Shown piece by piece: positions 8,710-61,714 of a stretch of DNA of 64,000 nt (positions within the stretch are counted from its first letter, which is position 1; each line of letters starts with the position of its first letter). The notes beneath the pieces are model-generated. The model saw nothing but the letters and a program-made list of their open reading frames with translations. It searched no databases and was not told where the DNA came from. The translations under genes were made by a program, and so were the position numbers. Source of the DNA: Chthonomonas calidirosea (GTDB taxonomy: Bacteria; Armatimonadota; Fimbriimonadia; Fimbriimonadales; Fimbriimonadaceae). The stretch is from assembly GCA_945882415.1 (NCBI GenBank), contig CAMCWC010000003.1, forward strand, positions 124,001 to 188,000, read 5' to 3'.

Positions 8710-10053
8710 TTACGGCGTTTCGAAACCAGACAGTACTTCCTTGGGCAGATCGACGAACCAAGTTTTCATGACGATCATCCCGATCAGAAGACCGGTGGTG
8801 ATCAACACAGTCCAGCCCATGAGTCCGATTCCTAGCTTGGCTTCGGTTTCACGTGCTTTACATTCGGTGGAGCTGAATTTTGTGAGATGCTCAAGGCCAC
8901 CCGGCAGATCCCCGGTGTACTCGGCCGTTGCTATCGTCGCGGTGTACTCTTCGGGAAAAGCGCGATGGCGCGCGAATATGTCGGACAGGCGATCACGTTC
9001 CGACATACCTTCGGCGGCCTTTCTAAGATCCGCCGCAAGTTCCAGGTTAGGTACCGCATCGGTCGCCATTAGGTACGACGTTCCATGGGGCAATCCTGCT
9101 TTGCTAAGTCGACCCAGCACCCAAGACAGTCGTGCGTAACCTTCGTTACGGGCTCGATGACCGATCATCGGAATCTTGAGCCCTAGTCGATGTCGAAGCG
9201 CGGTGGCGTTCGAGGACATGAAGTACCGGTGGGCTAGGTATAGAACCGCCGAGATGCTTAGGATGATGGGACCGTCTGGCCACAGGAACCGGTTCCACAT
9301 GATCTGACGGTTTGCCGCCATATAATCCTGCCCCTGTCCACCCGTCTTGTCTGCAAAGCGCCACATCTCAAAGAGAGAGTTCATCGTGGACTGCATTAGG
9401 AAGAGCCCGAGTACAGCGTTCACGAGCAGGAGATAAATCCATCTAAACCAGCGCTGGAAGTGATGCGCGGTGTTGTTTTGCCTGGCGATCTCTTCGAAGG
9501 CATCGGGCACGAAACCGCCCATCTCCGCGGCCTTTGTCGTGCCAATCACGTCCGGCGGAAAAAGGTCTGGGTATCGCGCCATGGCATCAGCAATGGTGCT
9601 TCCTTCGGCAACTCGAGCGGCAATATTGCGCATCGCGTCCGGAAACGGACCCTGGGTTCTGGACGCGATATCAGTCATCGCCGCACTTGGCGCGATCCCT
9701 GAGCGGATAGCGGCTCCGAGTTGGGTGAACAGGAAAAACCTAGCTTTGTGAGTGCCCTTTTTTGTTCGCACCGTCGCCGATGCATTTGGATCTGCAACGT
9801 TCGGCTGGCGCATCACGATCGGCTTGGATACCGCTCCCGATACCGGACGCGCAAAACTAGACGGAACTGTCGAAGGTACGGTCGCGCGCTTCGCCGCCGG
9901 GCCAACCCCCGTCGCCGACTTGCTCACAAAGCTCACCCTTTGGAAGCCCTGGCTTTGCAATGCATCTTGGGCCGAAGCCTGGCTGTCCGCCTGAATGCTG
10001 CCCTTTATGGATTTGCCTTGGCTATTCGTGGCCTGGTAGGTGTAGAACGGCAT
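8710..10053 (-). CDS. PilC/GspF-like platform protein, copy 2
   Basis: 447-aa paralogue of the downstream gene with the same layout: N-terminal MPFYTYQATNSQGKSIKG, a Ser/Ala/Pro linker near 50-90, a first T2SSF domain (FTQLGAAIRSGIAPSAA, TTKAAEMGGF) and a second (SWVLGRLSKAGLPHGTSY, ATIATAEYTGDLPGG) with hydrophobic segments between. The family's E-x-GG/TG turns are kept, but it is otherwise quite different from copy 1. No pilus ATPase (PilB/PilT) or PilM-Q genes are adjacent. Its start overlaps the folK 3' end by 32 bases. Confidence 0.87.
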   Translation of the reverse strand: MPFYTYQATNSQGKSIKGSIQADSQASAQDALQSQGFQRVSFVSKSATGVGPAAKRATVPSTVPSSFARPVSGAVSKPIVMRQPNVADPNASATVRTKKGTHKARFFLFTQLGAAIRSGIAPSAAMTDIASRTQGPFPDAMRNIAARVAEGSTIADAMARYPDLFPPDVIGTTKAAEMGGFVPDAFEEIARQNNTAHHFQRWFRWIYLLLVNAVLGLFLMQSTMNSLFEMWRFADKTGGQGQDYMAANRQIMWNRFLWPDGPIILSISAVLYLAHRYFMSSNATALRHRLGLKIPMIGHRARNEGYARLSWVLGRLSKAGLPHGTSYLMATDAVPNLELAADLRKAAEGMSERDRLSDIFARHRAFPEEYTATIATAEYTGDLPGGLEHLTKFSSTECKARETEAKLGIGLMGWTVLITTGLLIGMIVMKTWFVDLPKEVLSGFETP

Positions 10054-10528
10054 CGATTACCTCTAAGACGGATTCTGCTTGATCTTCTGTTTGCTTGAGC
10101 AGGTCTGGGATACAAAAACCCGCAAATTGCCAATCTGGCGCAACGTCCAAGATCGGAATAAGCACGAACCGACGTTCGGCAACTCGTGGGTGAGGCAGGA
10201 CCAACTGCTCGGTCTCCATCGTCACGCCTCGCATATCGATCAGATCAAGGTCGATTTCTCTTGGCCCAAATCGCAGTCCTGGCTTTCGGCCAAGGTCCCG
10301 TTCGGTTTGCTTAAGCAGCGCAAGTAGCGCAATCGGATCAAGGTCGGTGTCACCGTGTGCGGCAGCGTTCAGGAAGGTCGGCTGATCGGCAACGTACATC
10401 GGCGAAGTGCCATAGACCCGACTGACCATACGCCAGCGAACTGGACCCGAGAGGGCGTCGATCGCTCGCTGAATCTGACCAAGCCGGTCACCCAGGTTGC
10501 TTCCGAACGCGATGAGGACTTCCGACAC
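10022..10528 (-). CDS. folK: 2-amino-4-hydroxy-6-hydroxymethyldihydropteridine pyrophosphokinase
   Basis: HPPK transfers pyrophosphate from ATP to the pterin in folate synthesis. Motifs: LIAFGSNLGDR at the N-terminus, the central LKQTERDLGR and the metal-binding FGPREIDLDLIDM, then LPHPRVAERRFVLIPI. The GTG at 10528 gives MSEVLIAFGSNLG, the normal family N-terminus. A TTG at 10567 would add 13 residues and overlap the divergent small gene. No folP or folB is adjacent; the partner downstream is a PilC-like gene that overlaps its 3' end. Confidence 0.9.
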   Translation of the reverse strand: MSEVLIAFGSNLGDRLGQIQRAIDALSGPVRWRMVSRVYGTSPMYVADQPTFLNAAAHGDTDLDPIALLALLKQTERDLGRKPGLRFGPREIDLDLIDMRGVTMETEQLVLPHPRVAERRFVLIPILDVAPDWQFAGFCIPDLLKQTEDQAESVLEVIDAVLHLPGHE

Positions 10529-10554
10529 GTGGCAAGTCTGGCATTTCTGAGACG

Positions 10555-10902
10555 ATGGTAGCTTCAAAAAGCTATATTGCAGATAGGGTGAACCAGCGCA
10601 AATTCATGGGTCCCGGGTGCGTGATCGCGACAATGATCTTCGATGTCGCGGGGATCGGGATTTTGTATTTGCTCCAAATGGTCTTCCACCGAGAGCGCGA
10701 GAACGGGATCTATAGCGAACTGAACGGCTTGGATGTCGCGATTGGCAATGTCATCACTTGGACAATCTGGATTCTGGTGGCCACGATTGCTTTGAAAGTG
10801 GTTGCCTTGCCTTGGATTGTCATCCGAGCCCGAAAGCACGCGTCGGAGCCGCCCCCGCTTCCCGCTAACTGGTCACCAAAGCCGCCCAATCGCGACCAGT
10901 GA
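10555..10902 (+). CDS. Small two-helix membrane protein, unknown function
   Basis: 115-aa (or shorter) protein with two hydrophobic segments: about 19-42 (GCVIATMIFDVAGIGILYLL) and 65-88 (ITWTIWILVATIALKVVAL). It ends in a Pro-rich cytoplasmic-looking tail (EPPPLPANWSPKPPNRDQ). I do not recognise a family. In-frame alternatives are GTG 10588 and ATG 10606, the latter starting just before the first helix; none has a convincing ribosome binding site. It is divergent from folK and lies just upstream of the tRNA gene. Confidence 0.55.
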   Translation: MVASKSYIADRVNQRKFMGPGCVIATMIFDVAGIGILYLLQMVFHRERENGIYSELNGLDVAIGNVITWTIWILVATIALKVVALPWIVIRARKHASEPPPLPANWSPKPPNRDQ

Positions 10903-10940
10903 GCGATCGGCTTTGGGCTTGGGTATCATCTACGGGTTCG

Positions 10941-11016
10941 GCGGGTATAGCTCAGGGGTTAGAGCGCCTGACTGTGGCTCAGGAGGCCGTGGGTTCGAGA
11001 CCCATTATCCGCCCCA
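10941..11016 (+). tRNA. tRNA-His (anticodon GTG)
   Basis: 76-base cloverleaf. The acceptor GCGGGTA pairs with TATCCGC. The D-arm is GCTC...GAGC, the anticodon stem CCTGA/TCAGG with loop CTGTGGC (anticodon GTG), and the T-arm GTGGG-TTCGAGA-CCCAT. The discriminator is C73 and CCA is encoded at 11014-11016. The base before the acceptor (10940) is G, providing the G-1 that pairs with C73, the identity element of bacterial tRNA-His. Confidence 0.96.
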
Positions 11017-11040
11017 AGAAAACGCTCCTTACGTTTCTGT

Positions 11041-11892
11041 TCAACCCCCAGAAACAAGTTCCCAGAGGAGCGCAACGTTCCGAACGTGGCCCGTTTCCGC
11101 ATCAGGTGTTTCCACCGTCATCGGGACTCCCAGGAACCGCGAGTCGTTCACCAAGCACCGGAAAGCCACCGGGCCGATCTCGCCTTCACCAAGATGGTCG
11201 TGCCGATCAACGCGGCTACCGAGCGCTTTCTTGCTGTCGTTCACATGGATTGCCTTGATGTGGCTCGTGCCGACGATACGGTCGAACTCGTCGAAGGTGG
11301 CCGCGTAGGTTTCCTCGGTGCGAATGTCGTATCCCGCCGCGAAGATGTGGCACGTATCCAGACAAACCCCGACTCTTGGGGAATCGATTTGCTCAAGCAT
11401 GCTTGCGATTTCCTCGAACCGGTGGTTGAGCGCGCTTCCTTGACCGGCCGTCGTTTCCATGAGGAGCATCACGTCATCCGGGCACTCGGCAAGGACTTCT
11501 TTGGCGGACTCCGCCACGGCGCGGATGCCTTCTTCCACCCCTTGGCCCATGTGGCTGCCCATGTGCGAGACAACGAACCCAATTCCGTAAGTCGAGCATC
11601 GGCGAAGTTCATCGGTTAGCCCGCGAACGGATTGGGCTCGCTTGTCCAAATCTGGTGCACAGAGATTGACCAGATAACTGTCATGACTCACGATGGCGCT
11701 GATGCCGGTTTCTTCCTTCGCCGCACGAAAATCCTCAACCATGTCGGAGGTAATGGCTTTTGCTCGCCAAGTTTGCGGAGAACTTGTAAACACCTGAACA
11801 GCGGTGCAGCCGATGGCCTTACCGGCGCGTACGGCGTTGCCGAGTCCTTTGCCGGTAGGCATGTGAGCGCCGATCAAATGAGACAAATTCAC
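11041..11892 (-). CDS. nfo: Deoxyribonuclease IV (AP endonuclease IV)
   Basis: Zinc-dependent AP endonuclease of base excision repair that cleaves 5' of abasic sites. The 283-aa TIM barrel shows the expected ligands and motifs: LIGAHMPTGKGL (first His), VVSHMGSHMG, METTAGQGS, GVCLDTCHIFAAGYDIR, HVNDSKKALGSRVDRHDHLGEG (PROSITE-like region, split here) and VETPD. The start MNLSHLIGAHM is the family norm. With the Y-family polymerase and photolyase it makes three DNA-repair genes in 12 kb, although not in one operon. Confidence 0.95.
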   Translation of the reverse strand: MNLSHLIGAHMPTGKGLGNAVRAGKAIGCTAVQVFTSSPQTWRAKAITSDMVEDFRAAKEETGISAIVSHDSYLVNLCAPDLDKRAQSVRGLTDELRRCSTYGIGFVVSHMGSHMGQGVEEGIRAVAESAKEVLAECPDDVMLLMETTAGQGSALNHRFEEIASMLEQIDSPRVGVCLDTCHIFAAGYDIRTEETYAATFDEFDRIVGTSHIKAIHVNDSKKALGSRVDRHDHLGEGEIGPVAFRCLVNDSRFLGVPMTVETPDAETGHVRNVALLWELVSGG

Positions 11893-24580: not shown

Positions 24581-26038
24581 ATGATGCGCCCAATTCTCGC
24601 GGGCCTCGATACCGAGTATGGATTCTCGGTCGAGGCCCGTGGTGCTGAAAACCAGATTGAAGATTCACAAACGTTCGTCCGAACCTTTCCCGGGACAGCG
24701 TTTGTGGGCTGGGATTATCGGCACGAAGCTCCTCGATCCGACCTGCGCGGCTTTCGCCTAGACGCGCTTGCCTTTGACCCTGAGGACGCAAAGTTCGATG
24801 CAGGACGAACCTACGGCTCATCCGTCGAAATCCGCTCCGATCGTGTTCTAACCACCGGTGGGCGATTTTATAACGACCACGGTCATCCCGAATACGCCAC
24901 CCCTGAGTGCTTCACCCTACGCGGCTTAGTTGGCCACGAACTCGCGGGCGATGAGATTCTTCGGCAAACTGCCCGCGCCTACGAAGACAAGACTGGCAAG
25001 TCAGTAGCCCTGTACAAGAACAACACCGATTTCCACGGCGCATCTTGGGGGACCCACGAGAATTACTTGGTCTCGCGTTCTGTCGGCTACGAAAAGCTTT
25101 TCAAGGGTGTTATGCCCATGCTGCTCGTCCGGCAAATCTTAACCGGCTCCGGCAAAGTTGGTTCCGAGACCGGCGCAAAGGTGCCGTACCAAATCAGCCA
25201 GCGCGCTGACTTCATTGTCGAACCCGCTAACGCCGAGACCCTTTACCGCCGGCCGCTCTTTAACACCCGCGACGAGCCGCATTCTCGCCCGACCGACTTC
25301 ATACGCCTCCACGTGATTTCCGGGGACGCGAACATGATCGCAGCCAGCACGTTCCGCAAGGTCGGGCTTGTTAAACTCGCCGTCGCCCTCACCGAAATCG
25401 GAGCGGCTCCGCTCTGGGACATCAAAGACCCGGTGCGCTCGTTCCAGTCGATCAGCCGAGATGAGGGTTACCGCTTCGAAATTCCTCTAGCCAAGGACAG
25501 TTGGACCACCGCCGACGAAATCCTTGAGTCCTACTTCTCCGCCGCGGAACGATTCCTAGACCTTGACGAAGAACTGCAATCCATCATCGATGAGGGTCGA
25601 AAGCTGCTCCAAAGCCTGCGAACCGACTTTCCGTCGTTCGCCCGGACCGTCGACTGGGCGGCCAAGCGACAGATGCTGGAGATGTACATGCAAGATTCCG
25701 GAACAGACTGGAACGACCCCGCTCTGCGATCTTACGACTTGGAGTACCACAACCTGAATGCGGACGAGAGCCTGCATTCAGCCCTAGTGGATATGGATCT
25801 AGTCGTGCCAAACCCTGAAGCGATCTGGGAGCCGGAGCATTCGCGGGCCTGGGTGCGTGGCTATGCGATTCAGAACTTTGCAAGCCACTTGAAATCCGCC
25901 GCTTGGCGATCGCTAACTTTTGAGGTCAATGGCCAGCAAGAAGATGTGGAACTTTGGCCCGACCAGACGTACAATCTGGAACTGGACGCGCTTGCGAACG
26001 TAAATACGTTTATCCAAGCCATGAGAGAGATGAAATGA
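24581..26038 (+). CDS. Dop/PafA-superfamily protein (Dop-like) of the UBact system
   Basis: 485-aa carboxylate-amine ligase-fold enzyme homologous to Dop and PafA, which act on the ubiquitin-like proteins Pup or UBact. Visible signature blocks: ILAGLDTEYGFSV (ATP/Mg loop), RFYNDHGHPEYATPEC, LYKNNTDFHGASWGTHENYL, VRQILTGSGKVG, ISQRADFIVEP and FNTRDEPHS...LHVISGDANM. GASWGTHENYL and TGSGKVG look more like Dop than PafA. The ATG at 24581 gives MMRPILAGLDTEYG. It overlaps the UBact gene by 4 bases (ATGA). Whether it ligates, deconjugates or both cannot be read from sequence. Confidence 0.88.
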   Translation: MMRPILAGLDTEYGFSVEARGAENQIEDSQTFVRTFPGTAFVGWDYRHEAPRSDLRGFRLDALAFDPEDAKFDAGRTYGSSVEIRSDRVLTTGGRFYNDHGHPEYATPECFTLRGLVGHELAGDEILRQTARAYEDKTGKSVALYKNNTDFHGASWGTHENYLVSRSVGYEKLFKGVMPMLLVRQILTGSGKVGSETGAKVPYQISQRADFIVEPANAETLYRRPLFNTRDEPHSRPTDFIRLHVISGDANMIAASTFRKVGLVKLAVALTEIGAAPLWDIKDPVRSFQSISRDEGYRFEIPLAKDSWTTADEILESYFSAAERFLDLDEELQSIIDEGRKLLQSLRTDFPSFARTVDWAAKRQMLEMYMQDSGTDWNDPALRSYDLEYHNLNADESLHSALVDMDLVVPNPEAIWEPEHSRAWVRGYAIQNFASHLKSAAWRSLTFEVNGQQEDVELWPDQTYNLELDALANVNTFIQAMREMK

Positions 26039-26217
26039 CGGACGGAGATCGACTCACAAGACCGCTGAACCCTAGCCCAGACCGAAAGATGGGCGATGAA
26101 TCTGGACCAAGTGCGCCCGACGTGCAGAAGCCGGAAGGCGGAAACGAACTCCTGCGCCGAATGAAGAAGATCGACCCCGATCAGGCGAAAAAATATCGCC
26201 AGCGGTCAGGCGAATAA
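26035..26217 (+). CDS. ubact: UBact, prokaryotic ubiquitin-like protein
   Basis: Short 60-aa, Lys/Arg/Pro/Gly-rich, likely disordered protein that ends in QRSGE. This matches the R-(T/S)-G-(E/Q) C-terminus described for UBact, the Pup-like modifier of some Gram-negative phyla. The N-terminal block RLTRPLNPSPDRKMGDE and the internal ELLRRMKKIDPDQAKKYRQR also fit. The terminal residue is already Glu, so no deamidation step should be needed before conjugation. Start ATGA overlaps the Dop-like stop, and its TAA overlaps the proteasome ATG (TAATG). A longer in-frame reading from 25954 is only the shadow of the upstream gene. Confidence 0.9.
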   Translation: MTDGDRLTRPLNPSPDRKMGDESGPSAPDVQKPEGGNELLRRMKKIDPDQAKKYRQRSGE

Positions 26218-26969
26218 TGGCAACTGCCTTCGCTGGTCCAGCCCGCGACTTTAGCGAGTTGGTGACCTTGGCCCCGATGGGTACGCACGACGAAGTTCAC
26301 GGCACGACCGTGCTTGCCGTTCGTTACCGTGGCGGCGTCTTGATCCTTTCGGACCGCCGAGCCACCGCCGGAAACCTCATCATGTTCGACAAGGCCGAAA
26401 AGGTCCTTGCCCTTGATGACAAGATGGTCGTGGCCATCTCGGGTGCCTTTGCCAAGTCCATCGAGGTCTGTCGGTACCTCAAGCACAACTTTAAGTACTA
26501 CCGTCGGGTGACGCTCAACGAGATGTCGCTGGAAGGGAAGCTCGCTGAAATCAGCCGAGCCCTCGCGGGCAATGCTCCCATGGCGATGCAAGGCATCGGC
26601 CTTTTCCTGCCGATCGTCGCGGCCTATGACGAGAAGAAGGAAGACTTCGCCGTCTACTTCTTCGACGGAGCTGGAGCGCGATTTGAAAACGGAGCCTATG
26701 CTTGTGCAGGCTCTGGTTCGGAGCGAATCCGCGGCGTGTTTGAATACATCGCCCGCGTTAAGGGTCCATGGGAGAGCCGTGAGCTGGACGACGTGCTTAT
26801 GGACGGGCTGGAAATGCTCGACATCGCCGCCGACCTTGATTCGGCAACCGGTGGATTCCAACAGTTGCCGCCAATCGTGCGCATCCTCGATCGAGATGGC
26901 AACCGGCCGGTCGAAGAAAAGCACCTGGCCGAGCTTGTCGGACAGGTGCTAGAACGGAAACGAGCCTAA
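26217..26969 (+). CDS. prcB: 20S proteasome beta subunit
   Basis: Catalytic beta subunit of a bacterial 20S proteasome, 250 aa, with a 29-residue propeptide that would be removed after Gly 29 (DEVHG | TTVLAVRY). The nucleophile Thr 30 (Thr1 of the mature chain), Asp 46 (Asp17, in LILSDRRAT) and Lys 62 (Lys33, in KAEKV) are all in place, so the subunit should be active. GSGSERIRG is the usual later block. It closes the Dop-like/UBact/PrcB operon. No alpha subunit (prcA) or ARC/Mpa ATPase follows; the next gene is convergent. Confidence 0.93.
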   Translation: MATAFAGPARDFSELVTLAPMGTHDEVHGTTVLAVRYRGGVLILSDRRATAGNLIMFDKAEKVLALDDKMVVAISGAFAKSIEVCRYLKHNFKYYRRVTLNEMSLEGKLAEISRALAGNAPMAMQGIGLFLPIVAAYDEKKEDFAVYFFDGAGARFENGAYACAGSGSERIRGVFEYIARVKGPWESRELDDVLMDGLEMLDIAADLDSATGGFQQLPPIVRILDRDGNRPVEEKHLAELVGQVLERKRA

Positions 26970-58818: not shown

Positions 58819-59579
58819 TTCTGTTGAGCAACATCAGCCAGCGATTTGAGCGGCCAGATGGTGGGGCAACTCTCGCGCTTCACGACGTTTCGCTGGAGAT
58901 CCCTCGTGGCGAGTTCTTACTCCTTGCCGGCACGAACGGATCCGGCAAATCGACCTTGCTCAATGTTCTAGCCGGAGTGTTCCCGCCAACCTCGGGTCAG
59001 GTGCAAATTGACGGACTTGACGTCACGCGCCACGGACCAGAGCGTCGTGCCGTGAGTCTGGCTCGGGTCTTTCAGAACCCGTACCTCAGCACGGCCGGAA
59101 CCTTGACCGTCGCCGAAAACATGCGCCTCGCCGAGCTACGAGGCGGCACCCGCATCCTGCGCTTGGGGCTCAACCGGACCGCGAAAACCCGCCACGCCGA
59201 TGCCCTCGCCGCGTGCGGAATGGGCCTCGAAAACTTCCTCGACCGCCCCACCAACACCCTCAGCGGAGGCCAACGTCAGGCCCTCGCCGTCGTCATGGCA
59301 ACCATCGTCACCCCAAAAGTGCTGCTCCTAGACGAGCACACCGCCGCCCTCGATCCTGAAGCCGCCGAGAAGGTCATGCAACTCACCGCCCGCCTCGTCT
59401 CGGAGCATGCCATCACCACCGTCATGGTCACCCACTCCCTAGACCACCTCCCCCGCTTCGGCACCCGCGCCGTGCTCTTGCACCTCGGGCGGGTTCAAGA
59501 AGAGTGGAGCGGGGCAGAGAAGTCGGCGTTGACGTCTAACGAACTTCAGCAGCGGTTTGCTGGGTTGTATGGTGGGTGA
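58815..59579 (+). CDS. ABC transporter ATP-binding protein
   Basis: 254-aa ATPase: Walker A LAGTNGSGKSTLLNVLAG, Q-loop VFQNPYLSTAG, signature TLSGGQRQALAVVMA, Walker B KVLLLDEHTAALDP and H-loop MVTHSLDH. It completes the importer with the lipoprotein and permease; the YxxAG/LQQRFAGLYG tail is usual. Its GC content looks higher than that of the toxin-antitoxin genes that follow. Confidence 0.92.
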   Translation: MILLSNISQRFERPDGGATLALHDVSLEIPRGEFLLLAGTNGSGKSTLLNVLAGVFPPTSGQVQIDGLDVTRHGPERRAVSLARVFQNPYLSTAGTLTVAENMRLAELRGGTRILRLGLNRTAKTRHADALAACGMGLENFLDRPTNTLSGGQRQALAVVMATIVTPKVLLLDEHTAALDPEAAEKVMQLTARLVSEHAITTVMVTHSLDHLPRFGTRAVLLHLGRVQEEWSGAEKSALTSNELQQRFAGLYGG

Positions 59580-59613
59580 ATCCTCACATTGCAATGAGCC
59601 TCAAATTAAGTGT

Positions 59614-59628
59614 GTGTACAATGTACGC
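59614..59628 (+). promoter_or_regulatory. Candidate TA-operon operator (GTGTACAATGTACGC)
   Basis: A 15-base near-palindrome (12 of 15 positions symmetric, form GYGTACA-W-TGTACRC) 22 bases upstream of the antitoxin ATG, in the only gap between the ABC operon and the TA pair. This is a typical place for autoregulation by an RHH antitoxin. Confidence 0.5.
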
Positions 59629-59649
59629 AGAGCAAACCTGGACTGCAAT

Positions 59650-59931
59650 ATGAGAGCGACAACCCCAAATCCCAAAGACGCCCGGATTGATTTGCGCGTC
59701 AATCTGAGCCAGAAAACCCTATTGGAACTTGCCGCCGCCTCGCAAGGGAAGAAACTTTCCGATTTCGTGATCAGCGCATCCACCGAAGCTGCGCAGTTAG
59801 CGCTGGCCGACCAGAACCGCTTCGTTTTGCCCGAAGAGCAGATGACAAGGTTCTTGGAAGTGCTCGAAGAAGAGCCACAGGACCTTCCCGCACTCCGCGC
59901 TCTCTTCGCTCGCAAGAGTGTTTTTGAATGA
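59650..59931 (+). CDS. DUF1778/TacA-like ribbon-helix-helix antitoxin
   Basis: 93-aa protein of the DUF1778 (TacA/AtaR) family: an N-terminal beta strand/RHH (DARIDLRVNLSQKTLLELAA, SQGKKLSDFVISASTEAAQL) that binds DNA and the C-terminal EQMTRFLEVLEEEPQDLPALRALFAR that blocks the toxin. ATG at 59650; an earlier reading from GTG 59557 lies inside the ABC ATPase. ATGA overlap with the GNAT gene is the usual coupled order (antitoxin first). Confidence 0.87.
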   Translation: MRATTPNPKDARIDLRVNLSQKTLLELAAASQGKKLSDFVISASTEAAQLALADQNRFVLPEEQMTRFLEVLEEEPQDLPALRALFARKSVFE

Positions 59932-60437
59932 CGCCCCGGTTCCAGGCGCCGGTGCTCCTGTCCGAAATCCACTCCGTTGGTTCATTTGACTGTGGAGTCG
60001 AAGCGCTGAACTCCTTCCTAAAGAATCACGCTTTGCAAAACCAGCGAAACAACTCTGCCCGCACATTTGTTTCCACCCGCACCGACGGTCCGGAAGTGGT
60101 CGGCTTCTACAGTCTATGCGCTGCCTCGGTCGATTTTGAACAAACTCCTGAACGGATTCGCAAAGGGCTGGCTCGACACGAAGTTCCGCTTGTGCTTCTT
60201 GCAAGACTTGCAGTGGACTCTAGTTGCAAAGGCCAAGGACTCGGGGCCAGCCTGCTGCAAGACGCGTTCAGCAGATTCATGAAGGCCCAAGAAGCCATCG
60301 GTGCCCGCGCCCTCCTCGCCCATGCGAAAGATGAGGAAGCGAAGGCGTTCTACGAAAAGTACGGATTCGTTGCCACCGAAGGGCTGCCCTTTCACCTCTA
60401 CATCCTGACCAAGACGATCAAGCAAACGCTGTCCTGA
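59928..60437 (+). CDS. GNAT-family toxin (TacT/AtaT-like acetyltransferase)
   Basis: 169-aa GNAT acetyltransferase that in this family acetylates the amino acid on charged tRNA and stops translation. Motif A: LARLAVDSSCKGQGLGASLL (acetyl-CoA pyrophosphate loop) and the catalytic-Tyr region KAFYEKYGFVATEG. FDCGVEALNSFLKNHA at the N-terminus is typical of TacT. Paired with the DUF1778 antitoxin. The tRNA target is unknown. The IS110 element starts about 120 bases downstream. Confidence 0.88.
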   Translation: MTPRFQAPVLLSEIHSVGSFDCGVEALNSFLKNHALQNQRNNSARTFVSTRTDGPEVVGFYSLCAASVDFEQTPERIRKGLARHEVPLVLLARLAVDSSCKGQGLGASLLQDAFSRFMKAQEAIGARALLAHAKDEEAKAFYEKYGFVATEGLPFHLYILTKTIKQTLS

Positions 60438-60564
60438 AATGTGCGCTGGGGGAGTTCGGGCCAACCCCTTAGTAAATTTGTGATTTACTTCGAGCAACGT
60501 CGTTCGCGTAACAAACGAGGCCCCATTCAGAACAGCTCTCCCTAGATGATTAATGAATTAATTC

Positions 60565-60775
60565 GCCTAGTAAGTTAAACGGTGAACCAGCCAGGATCAG
60601 TCCGCGCATACGCCTGAGGCTTTGTCCTCGTCCCTTAGAGTGCGGCCCTGGCTTGCGTTCGCAGGTTCGCATACCATCGTGGAAGTCCCGCCGTTTCTAA
60701 TTGAAGCAGAGCGACGGGAACGTTCCGTTTTCGTGACTAGGGTGATCCGCGAGCGCAAGGTTCTTGGAAAAGCCC
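60565..60775 (+). ncRNA. Candidate IS110 bridge RNA
   Basis: The 211-base left-end region before the transposase folds into the kind of multi-stem RNA used by IS110-group recombinases. AGCCAGG (60589-60595) pairs with CCTGGCT (60647-60653), CCGC (60602-60605) with GCGG (60642-60645), and GAGG (60616-60619) with CCTC (60626-60629). A second hairpin is TCCCG/CGGGA (60686-60690, 60715-60719) enclosing GTTTC/GAAGC (60693-60697, 60703-60707). Guide loops and boundaries are not assigned. Confidence 0.45.
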
Positions 60776-61714
60776 ATGAATATTGTAGTCTCCCAGATTG
60801 GAATCGACGTTGGCAAAGATGAGCTTGTGGTCTGCATTGACCAAGGAAAGCCTTTTGCGTGCCCCAACACGGCCAAGGGCTGCCTCGAAATCATCGAGAA
60901 GTTCCCTGCAGGCGCAGAGGTGCACCTGGAAGCCAGCGGTGGATATGAGCGCCTCGTCCGCCGGTTGCTGAGCGAACACGGGTTCAAAGTAGTGGTGCAC
61001 AACCCTTTGAAGTCGCGCCGAATTGCGCAGGCTCAAGGGGTTCGCGCGAAAACCGACCCCGTCGATGCAAAACTCCTCTCACGTTCAGGGCACTTGTTGC
61101 CTCAAGAAACGGTCAAGCGCACCGAACGGCAGCAACTGGCCGACCACTCCAGAGCGATTGATGCGCTTAAAGATATGGTGATGTCTCTCAAGCAGAGCCA
61201 GGTCATGCCAGAGCTAGACTCAGCGGCAAAGCAGCTCTATGCGGAGGCAATCCTTGCCCTTCAGCAACAAATCGATGCAGCCGAAAAGGCATTTGAAGCA
61301 CGCGTGAAAGCGAGCGACTGTGCCGAAACCTACCAACTCATTCAGACCGTTCCGTCATTAGGAAAGCTCACCGCACGTCGGTGCGTTTGCGAACTTCCAG
61401 AAGACGTCATGGAGCGAAGCACTGGCCAAATTGCCAGCTACGCCGGACTCGCCCCGATTGACAATAGCTCGGGCAAGCGAACTGGTCGATCTCGTTTAGG
61501 GCACGGTAACGCAAGACTGAAGGCCGCCTTCTACATGCCAGCACTGTGCGCGATTCGACACGAAGCATGGGCGAAAGAACTTTACCAAAGACTCAGAAGC
61601 GACAAAAAATCTCATCAAACGGCAACCGTGGCCGTAATGCGAAGGCTACTGATCCGCGCCGTTGCGGTTCTTAAAAGACGCACCGGATGGGTTTTAGAGG
61701 CGAAAACCGGTTGA
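60776..61714 (+). CDS. IS110-family transposase
   Basis: 312-aa DEDD recombinase. N-terminal RuvC-like domain: QIGIDVGKDELVVCID (first Asp), VHLEASGGYERLV (Glu), and RAKTDPVDAKLLS (Asp-x-x-Asp). C-terminal Transposase_20 domain: LIQTVPSLGKLTARRCV, SYAGLAPIDNSSGKRTGRSR and LGHGNARLKAAFYMPAL. The S-G in NSSGK holds the proposed catalytic Ser. ATG at 60776 (MNIVVSQIGIDVG) chosen over TTG 60764. The frame is undamaged, so the element may still be mobile. Confidence 0.93.
   Translation: MNIVVSQIGIDVGKDELVVCIDQGKPFACPNTAKGCLEIIEKFPAGAEVHLEASGGYERLVRRLLSEHGFKVVVHNPLKSRRIAQAQGVRAKTDPVDAKLLSRSGHLLPQETVKRTERQQLADHSRAIDALKDMVMSLKQSQVMPELDSAAKQLYAEAILALQQQIDAAEKAFEARVKASDCAETYQLIQTVPSLGKLTARRCVCELPEDVMERSTGQIASYAGLAPIDNSSGKRTGRSRLGHGNARLKAAFYMPALCAIRHEAWAKELYQRLRSDKKSHQTATVAVMRRLLIRAVAVLKRRTGWVLEAKTG

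What the first reader, a model, noticed from the sequence alone, without database searches (positions are those of the whole stretch)
26035..26217. 60-residue UBact ubiquitin-like gene ending RSGE
Seen: a 60-codon frame, with overlapping start and stop, between a Dop/PafA homologue and a proteasome beta gene, ending QRSGE. Known: UBact proteins have an R(T/S)G(E/Q) end and accompany Dop/PafA homologues and proteasomes in some Gram-negative phyla. Inference: a genuine conjugation tag that needs no deamidation.
Basis: partly seen in the sequence, partly recalled or inferred. Interest (0 to 1): 0.75.

Follow-up and report, generated by a model that had tools for sequence, protein, structure and literature searches.

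The report
UBact protein tag in Armatimonadota
This is a real gene for UBact, an already described small bacterial protein thought to be attached to other proteins to send them to the proteasome; the gene itself is ordinary, but comparing it with relatives shows that its last residue flips often between Glu and Gln and that the partner ATPase lacks the usual tyrosine-containing proteasome-docking tail.

Summary
A 60-codon ORF (26035-26217, +) ends YRQRSGE. It overlaps the stop of an upstream Dop-type gene (ATGA) and the start of a proteasome beta gene (TAATG). It is UBact: NCBIfam NF033388 80.6 bits (cut-off 35) and Pfam PF20513 79.2 bits (cut-off 27.8). It is under strong purifying selection. 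The host is a Fimbriimonadaceae-like Armatimonadota genome. In 251 genomes of the phylum, all 137 with UBact carry a Pup_ligase-family enzyme, against 13 of 114 without. The neighbour is the hydrolase (Dop) type. The PafA-type ligase, alpha subunit and Mpa-like ATPase lie at three other loci, although relatives keep one six-gene operon. The terminal Glu is real but labile: the nearest relative has the identical protein ending in Gln. E/Q flips at least 28 times (15 forced by well-supported branches) among 135 loci, while G(-2), R(-4), Q(-5) and Y(-7) never change. Side finding: 77/77 partner ATPases have Ile/Val, never Tyr, at the penultimate position, and the 79 alpha subunits lack the Tyr-contacting residues known from M. 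tuberculosis (Arg26 in 2, Glu119 in 0) but keep Lys52 and Asp144. UBact-type proteasomes may dock differently. Conjugation itself was not tested.

The parts
26035..26217 (+). UBact, 60 aa, C-terminus YRQRSGE (terminal codon GAA, stop TAA)
   Evidence: NF033388 80.6 bits (cut-off 35), PF20513 79.2 bits (cut-off 27.8); dN 0.007 and dS 0.41 against the sister
24581..26038 (+). Dop-type Pup_ligase-family enzyme (485 aa): Dop-loop present, catalytic Asp in NDHGHPEY; the residue matching actinobacterial Glu8 is Asp (LDTEYG)
   Evidence: PF03136 412.7 bits; TIGR03688 (Dop) 351 bits against TIGR03686 (PafA) 253, both below curated cut-offs; Dop-loop and motif tables
26217..26969 (+). 20S proteasome beta subunit, 29-residue propeptide, mature Thr1 codon at 26304; Thr1/Asp17/Lys33 all present
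   Evidence: TIGR03690 136.7 bits (below cut-off 191.9), PF00227 87.7 bits; solved structures align residue 30 to mature residue 1
26035..26038 (+). ATGA start/stop overlap between Dop and UBact (translational coupling inferred)
   Evidence: sequence; an ATG at the same -4 offset in 49 of 135 non-redundant homologous loci
26215..26219 (+). TAATG stop/start overlap between UBact and the beta subunit
   Evidence: sequence; also in the sister locus

Best explanation
The ORF is UBact, a Pup-like, largely unfolded conjugation tag. Inferred cycle: UBact is made already ending in Glu, so a PafA-type ligase (encoded elsewhere, contig C19) can activate the terminal side-chain carboxylate and join it to a substrate lysine. 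The adjacent Dop-type enzyme removes the tag again, and would deamidate it in relatives that end in Gln. An Mpa/ARC-like ATPase (contig C6) with an N-terminal helical segment recognises the C-terminal helices of UBact, threads the substrate, and feeds it to a 20S proteasome made of the neighbouring beta subunit and a divergent alpha subunit (contig C6). Shown here: gene identity, conservation, component inventory, enzyme type, catalytic residues, co-occurrence and co-absence. Inferred from the Pup system: every biochemical step.
For: Family models over cut-off. Purifying selection. Perfect nesting with Pup_ligase-family genes: 137/137 against 13/114. Two reduced family members (G177, G181) lack UBact, Pup_ligase homologues and PF00227 matches together. 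The own genome encodes a PafA-type enzyme (C19), alpha and ATPase (C6). Dop type and PafA type separate by the Dop-loop region (45 against 24 residues) and active-site motif (DHGH against DAVGSH). The beta triad T1/D17/K33 is intact. Relatives keep the operon ATPase-dop-UBact-beta-alpha-pafA. AlphaFold gives low-confidence coil with helices 38-44 and 48-58 (pLDDT 67, pTM 0.23), similar to the described state of Pup (PMC3511204).
Against: No conjugate, ligase activity or degradation was tested, and I found no biochemical test of UBact in the paper library. All partner proteins fall below the curated equivalog cut-offs of their actinobacterial counterparts. The Dop has Asp where actinobacterial Dop has Glu8. 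The ATPase lacks the GQYL docking tail, so transfer of the Mpa mechanism is not automatic.
Confidence: 0.88

Rival explanations
1. UBact is conjugated but serves mainly as a reversible, non-degradative mark, and its proteasome link is incidental.
For: The ATPase lacks the known GQYL/HbYX docking tail. In this family ATPase, alpha and pafA have left the operon.
Against: UBact and beta stay adjacent with overlapping codons. The beta triad is intact. The ATPase tail is a conserved aliphatic motif rather than decay (77/77). Two reduced genomes lack tag, enzymes and proteasome together.
Confidence: 0.08
2. The adjacent Dop-type enzyme is itself the ligase (or does both jobs) in this lineage, since deamidation is not needed with a Glu end.
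For: It is the only Pup_ligase-family gene linked to UBact here. Its active site departs from actinobacterial Dop (Asp in place of Glu8).
Against: It keeps the Dop-loop and DHGH motif. A second gene with PafA features (no Dop-loop, DAVGSH, Asp at the position of Dop Ser452) is in the same genome. Nearly all UBact genomes carry two homologues.
Confidence: 0.04
3. Spurious small ORF or non-functional relic.
For: Short, 60 codons.
Against: Two curated HMMs, dN/dS far below 1, invariant C-terminal positions across phyla.
Confidence: 0.005

Closest known systems
UBact (Lehmann et al. 2017, doi 10.1016/j.bbrc.2017.01.037, seen here only as a citation in other papers; NCBIfam NF033388, Pfam PF20513)
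   Same: Family models over cut-off; R[ST]G[EQ] tail; association with Dop/PafA homologues and proteasome genes.
   Different: Nothing that excludes membership. In this family of bacteria only dop-UBact-beta stay together; ATPase, alpha and pafA are dispersed.
Pup (prokaryotic ubiquitin-like protein) of Actinobacteria
   Same: Small disordered tag with C-terminal helical half, terminal Glu or Gln, Dop/PafA enzymes, Mpa/ARC-type ATPase, 20S proteasome.
   Different: Ends RSGE, not GGE/GGQ; no Pup-family match in the Pfam and NCBIfam scans; the ATPase tail is aliphatic instead of GQYL.
C. glutamicum Pup with encoded terminal Glu (PMC3511204)
   Same: Encoded terminal Glu bypasses deamidation, yet Dop is kept.
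   Different: Belongs to the Pup family, which this protein does not match; the tag of C. glutamicum was not compared by sequence here.

Membership tests
UBact | Score above the curated family cut-offs | tested here: met
   NF033388 80.6 against 35; PF20513 79.2 against 27.8
UBact | C-terminal R[ST]G[EQ] | tested here: met
   RSGE; 135/135 non-redundant homologues end R[ST]G[EQ]
UBact | Neighbourhood with Dop/PafA homologue and proteasome genes | tested here: met
   Dop-type upstream, beta downstream
UBact | Genome encodes ligase, alpha subunit and Mpa/ARC-like ATPase | tested here: met
   C19 PafA-type, C6 alpha (TIGR03691 66 bits, below cut-off 139), C6 ATPase (TIGR03689 438 bits, below cut-off 505)
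UBact | Intrinsic disorder | tested here: inconclusive
   Hydropathy 0.32 against boundary 0.425 and pTM 0.23 favour disorder; no experiment
UBact | Covalent conjugation to lysines | not testable with these tools
   needs mass spectrometry or reconstitution
Pup | Match to the Pup family model | tested here: not met
   only UBact found at E up to 1 in Pfam and NCBIfam
Pup | GG[EQ] C-terminus | tested here: not met
   ends SGE
Dop (depupylase), for the gene at 24581 | Dop-loop and Dop-type catalytic Asp motif | tested here: met
   loop region 45 residues (Dop references 39, PafA-type homologues 23-24); NDHGH
Dop (depupylase), for the gene at 24581 | Curated equivalog cut-off TIGR03688 | tested here: not met
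   351 against 492.3 bits
Dop (depupylase), for the gene at 24581 | Glu8 of the active site | tested here: not met
   Asp in the window and in 15 further Dops, in both E- and Q-tailed lineages
Mpa/ARC proteasomal ATPase, for the C6 gene | C-terminal GQYL (penultimate Tyr) | tested here: not met
   ends RKAIV; 77/77 non-redundant homologues have I/V at the penultimate position

The most novel reading that the evidence does not exclude
UBact-type proteasomes use a docking mode different from the penultimate-Tyr mode described for Mpa. Their ATPases end in a conserved aliphatic pair (penultimate I/V in 77/77; last residue aliphatic or Phe in 76/77). Their alpha subunits have lost both residues that hydrogen-bond the Tyr of M. 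tuberculosis Mpa (Arg26 kept in 2/79, Glu119 in 0/79, the latter replaced mostly by Val/Ile) but keep the carboxylate-binding Lys52 and Asp144 (79/79 each). In addition the tag's end switches freely between ready (Glu) and needing deamidation (Gln), so in Glu lineages Dop must be kept for tag removal.
Probability: 0.55. Interest if true: 0.55.

Novelty: new member of a known kind. Interest (0 to 1): 0.36.

Why it matters
UBact is a second bacterial protein-tagging system for which I found no biochemical test in the library. The data give ready experiments: sister species whose tags differ only in the last residue (Glu against Gln), a clear assignment of which enzyme should be ligase and which hydrolase, and a predicted Tyr-free ATPase-proteasome docking motif that can be tested by swapping tails.

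Tried and rejected
Chance ORF: rejected. Adjacent enzyme as ligase: disfavoured by Dop-loop and motif. Link between the Dop Glu8-to-Asp change and the E/Q end: none convincing (Asp with Q in 13, Asp with E in 3). Scan of 358 Dop columns for a residue that follows the E/Q end: nothing convincing after allowing for the number of columns; few informative pairs. Solved structures for UBact: none relevant. Literature on UBact biochemistry in the held library: only passing citations.

Full report
OBSERVATION. Reading window 26035-26217 (+) gives ATG...TAA, 60 codons, ending YRQRSGE. The start overlaps the stop of the upstream gene (ATGA) and the stop overlaps the start of the downstream gene (TAATG). 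Against the nearest relative (L078/L169, JAIXQR010000001.1, a pond MAG with Dop 91% identical) the UBact gene differs by 13 synonymous codons and one non-synonymous codon (dN 0.007, dS 0.41). Dop and beta show dN 0.056 and 0.036 with dS about 1.3. The single amino-acid change is the last residue, Glu (GAA) here and Gln (CAA) there.

IDENTITY. The protein matches NCBIfam NF033388 'ubiquitin-like protein UBact' with 80.6 bits (cut-off 35) and Pfam PF20513 with 79.2 bits (cut-off 27.8). No Pup-family model matches. The best named relatives are Fimbriimonadaceae / Armatimonadota MAGs. In 251 genomes of the phylum, 137 have UBact and none of 14 control genomes does. All 137 also have a Pup_ligase-family gene, against 13 of the 114 without UBact (my count from the tables). 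Two small-genome family members (G177, G181; 1.5 Mb, 97% complete) lack UBact, Pup_ligase homologues and any proteasome-family match, which fits co-loss of the whole pathway.

COMPONENTS. The upstream gene (24581-26038) is a Pup_ligase-family enzyme of Dop type. It has a Dop-loop region of 45 residues (Dop references 39, PafA-type homologues 23-24) and the motif NDHGHPEY around the catalytic Asp, where PafA types have DAVGSH or DMGH. The discriminating features are those described in PMC7947786. A second homologue on contig C19 (about 9790-11271, -) lacks the Dop-loop and has IDAVGSHLEYA, so it is the likely ligase. Contig C6 carries an alpha subunit (about 137072-137743, -; TIGR03691 66 bits; it groups with the operonic alphas of relatives) and an Mpa/ARC-like ATPase (about 59516-61180, -; TIGR03689 438 bits). 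The beta subunit has Thr1, Asp17 and Lys33 after a 29-residue propeptide. All partner proteins fall below the curated equivalog cut-offs, so they are divergent homologues, not called equivalogs. In Chthonomonadales-type Armatimonadota, Poribacteria and Nitrospirales relatives the order is ATPase-dop-UBact-beta-alpha-pafA in one operon; in this family only dop-UBact-beta remains together. In three of those operons the single-sequence search missed UBact, but the profile search finds it.

THE C-TERMINUS. Among 135 non-redundant Dop-linked UBacts, the last residue is Q in 69 and E in 66, with no other residue. On a Dop tree this needs at least 28 changes, 15 of them forced by branches with 95% or better support. 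Positions -2 (G), -4 (R), -5 (Q) and -7 (Y) show no change at all, and -3 (S/T) one. So the encoded Glu is genuine but labile. Inference: Dop is kept in Glu lineages because it removes the tag, as argued for C. glutamicum in PMC3511204.

MECHANISM. Inferred from Pup: PafA-type ligation of the terminal Glu to lysines, Dop-type removal, capture by the N-terminal helical region of the ATPase, and threading into the 20S core. AlphaFold on 53 sequences gives low-confidence coil with helices 38-44 and 48-58; hydropathy and charge put the protein on the disordered side. None of this shows conjugation.

A DIFFERENCE FROM THE PUP SYSTEM. Actinobacterial Mpa docks through GQYL with a penultimate Tyr (PMC8223512, PMC8755798). 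In 77 non-redundant UBact-lineage ATPases the penultimate residue is Ile (41) or Val (36), and the last is aliphatic or Phe in 76. In M. tuberculosis the Tyr hydrogen-bonds alpha Arg26 or Glu119, the carboxylate can bind Lys52, and Asp144 is a further contact (PMC9599533). In 79 UBact-lineage alphas, Lys52 and Asp144 are invariant, Arg26 is kept in 2 and Glu119 in none (Val 51, Ile 20, Thr 4, Leu 4). Rhodococcus alpha, used as a control, keeps all four. The alignment around 117-126 is ungapped and anchored by Ala125-Glu126. Many of these sequences are related, so the counts are not independent. This suggests matched change of tail and pocket; it is a prediction, not a demonstration.

VERDICT. 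A confirmed, ordinary new instance of the known UBact family. The added value is the dispersed partner set, the enzyme-type assignment, the E/Q switching and the Tyr-free docking prediction.

Noticed in passing
G000:C6 about 59516-61180 (L159:1017-2681, -) and relatives: The Mpa/ARC-like ATPase ends RKAIV; 77/77 homologues have I/V at the penultimate position and none the Tyr of GQYL. Alpha subunits lack Arg26/Glu119 equivalents but keep Lys52/Asp144.
   Followed up: yes
24581-26038 (+): The residue matching active-site Glu8 of Dop is Asp here (LDTEYG) and in 15 other Dops among 103 readable; at least 6 changes on the tree, no clear link with the E/Q end.
   Followed up: partly
L161:603-803 (-) (G013:C4); a similar short second match on G079:C30: A second, divergent UBact-like ORF (ends YEQRSGQ, proline-rich front) directly downstream of the normal UBact: possible tandem paralogue.
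   Followed up: partly
L167:1367-1711 (-) (G134:C100): A divergent UBact-like protein ending YRQRNGE in a genome with two other UBact matches (6% contamination, so a mixed bin is possible).
   Followed up: no
G177, G181: Two 1.5 Mb family members lack UBact, Dop/PafA and all proteasome-family proteins.
   Followed up: partly
60764-61714 (+): ORF resembling an IS110-type transposase by eye; not tested with a family model.
   Followed up: no
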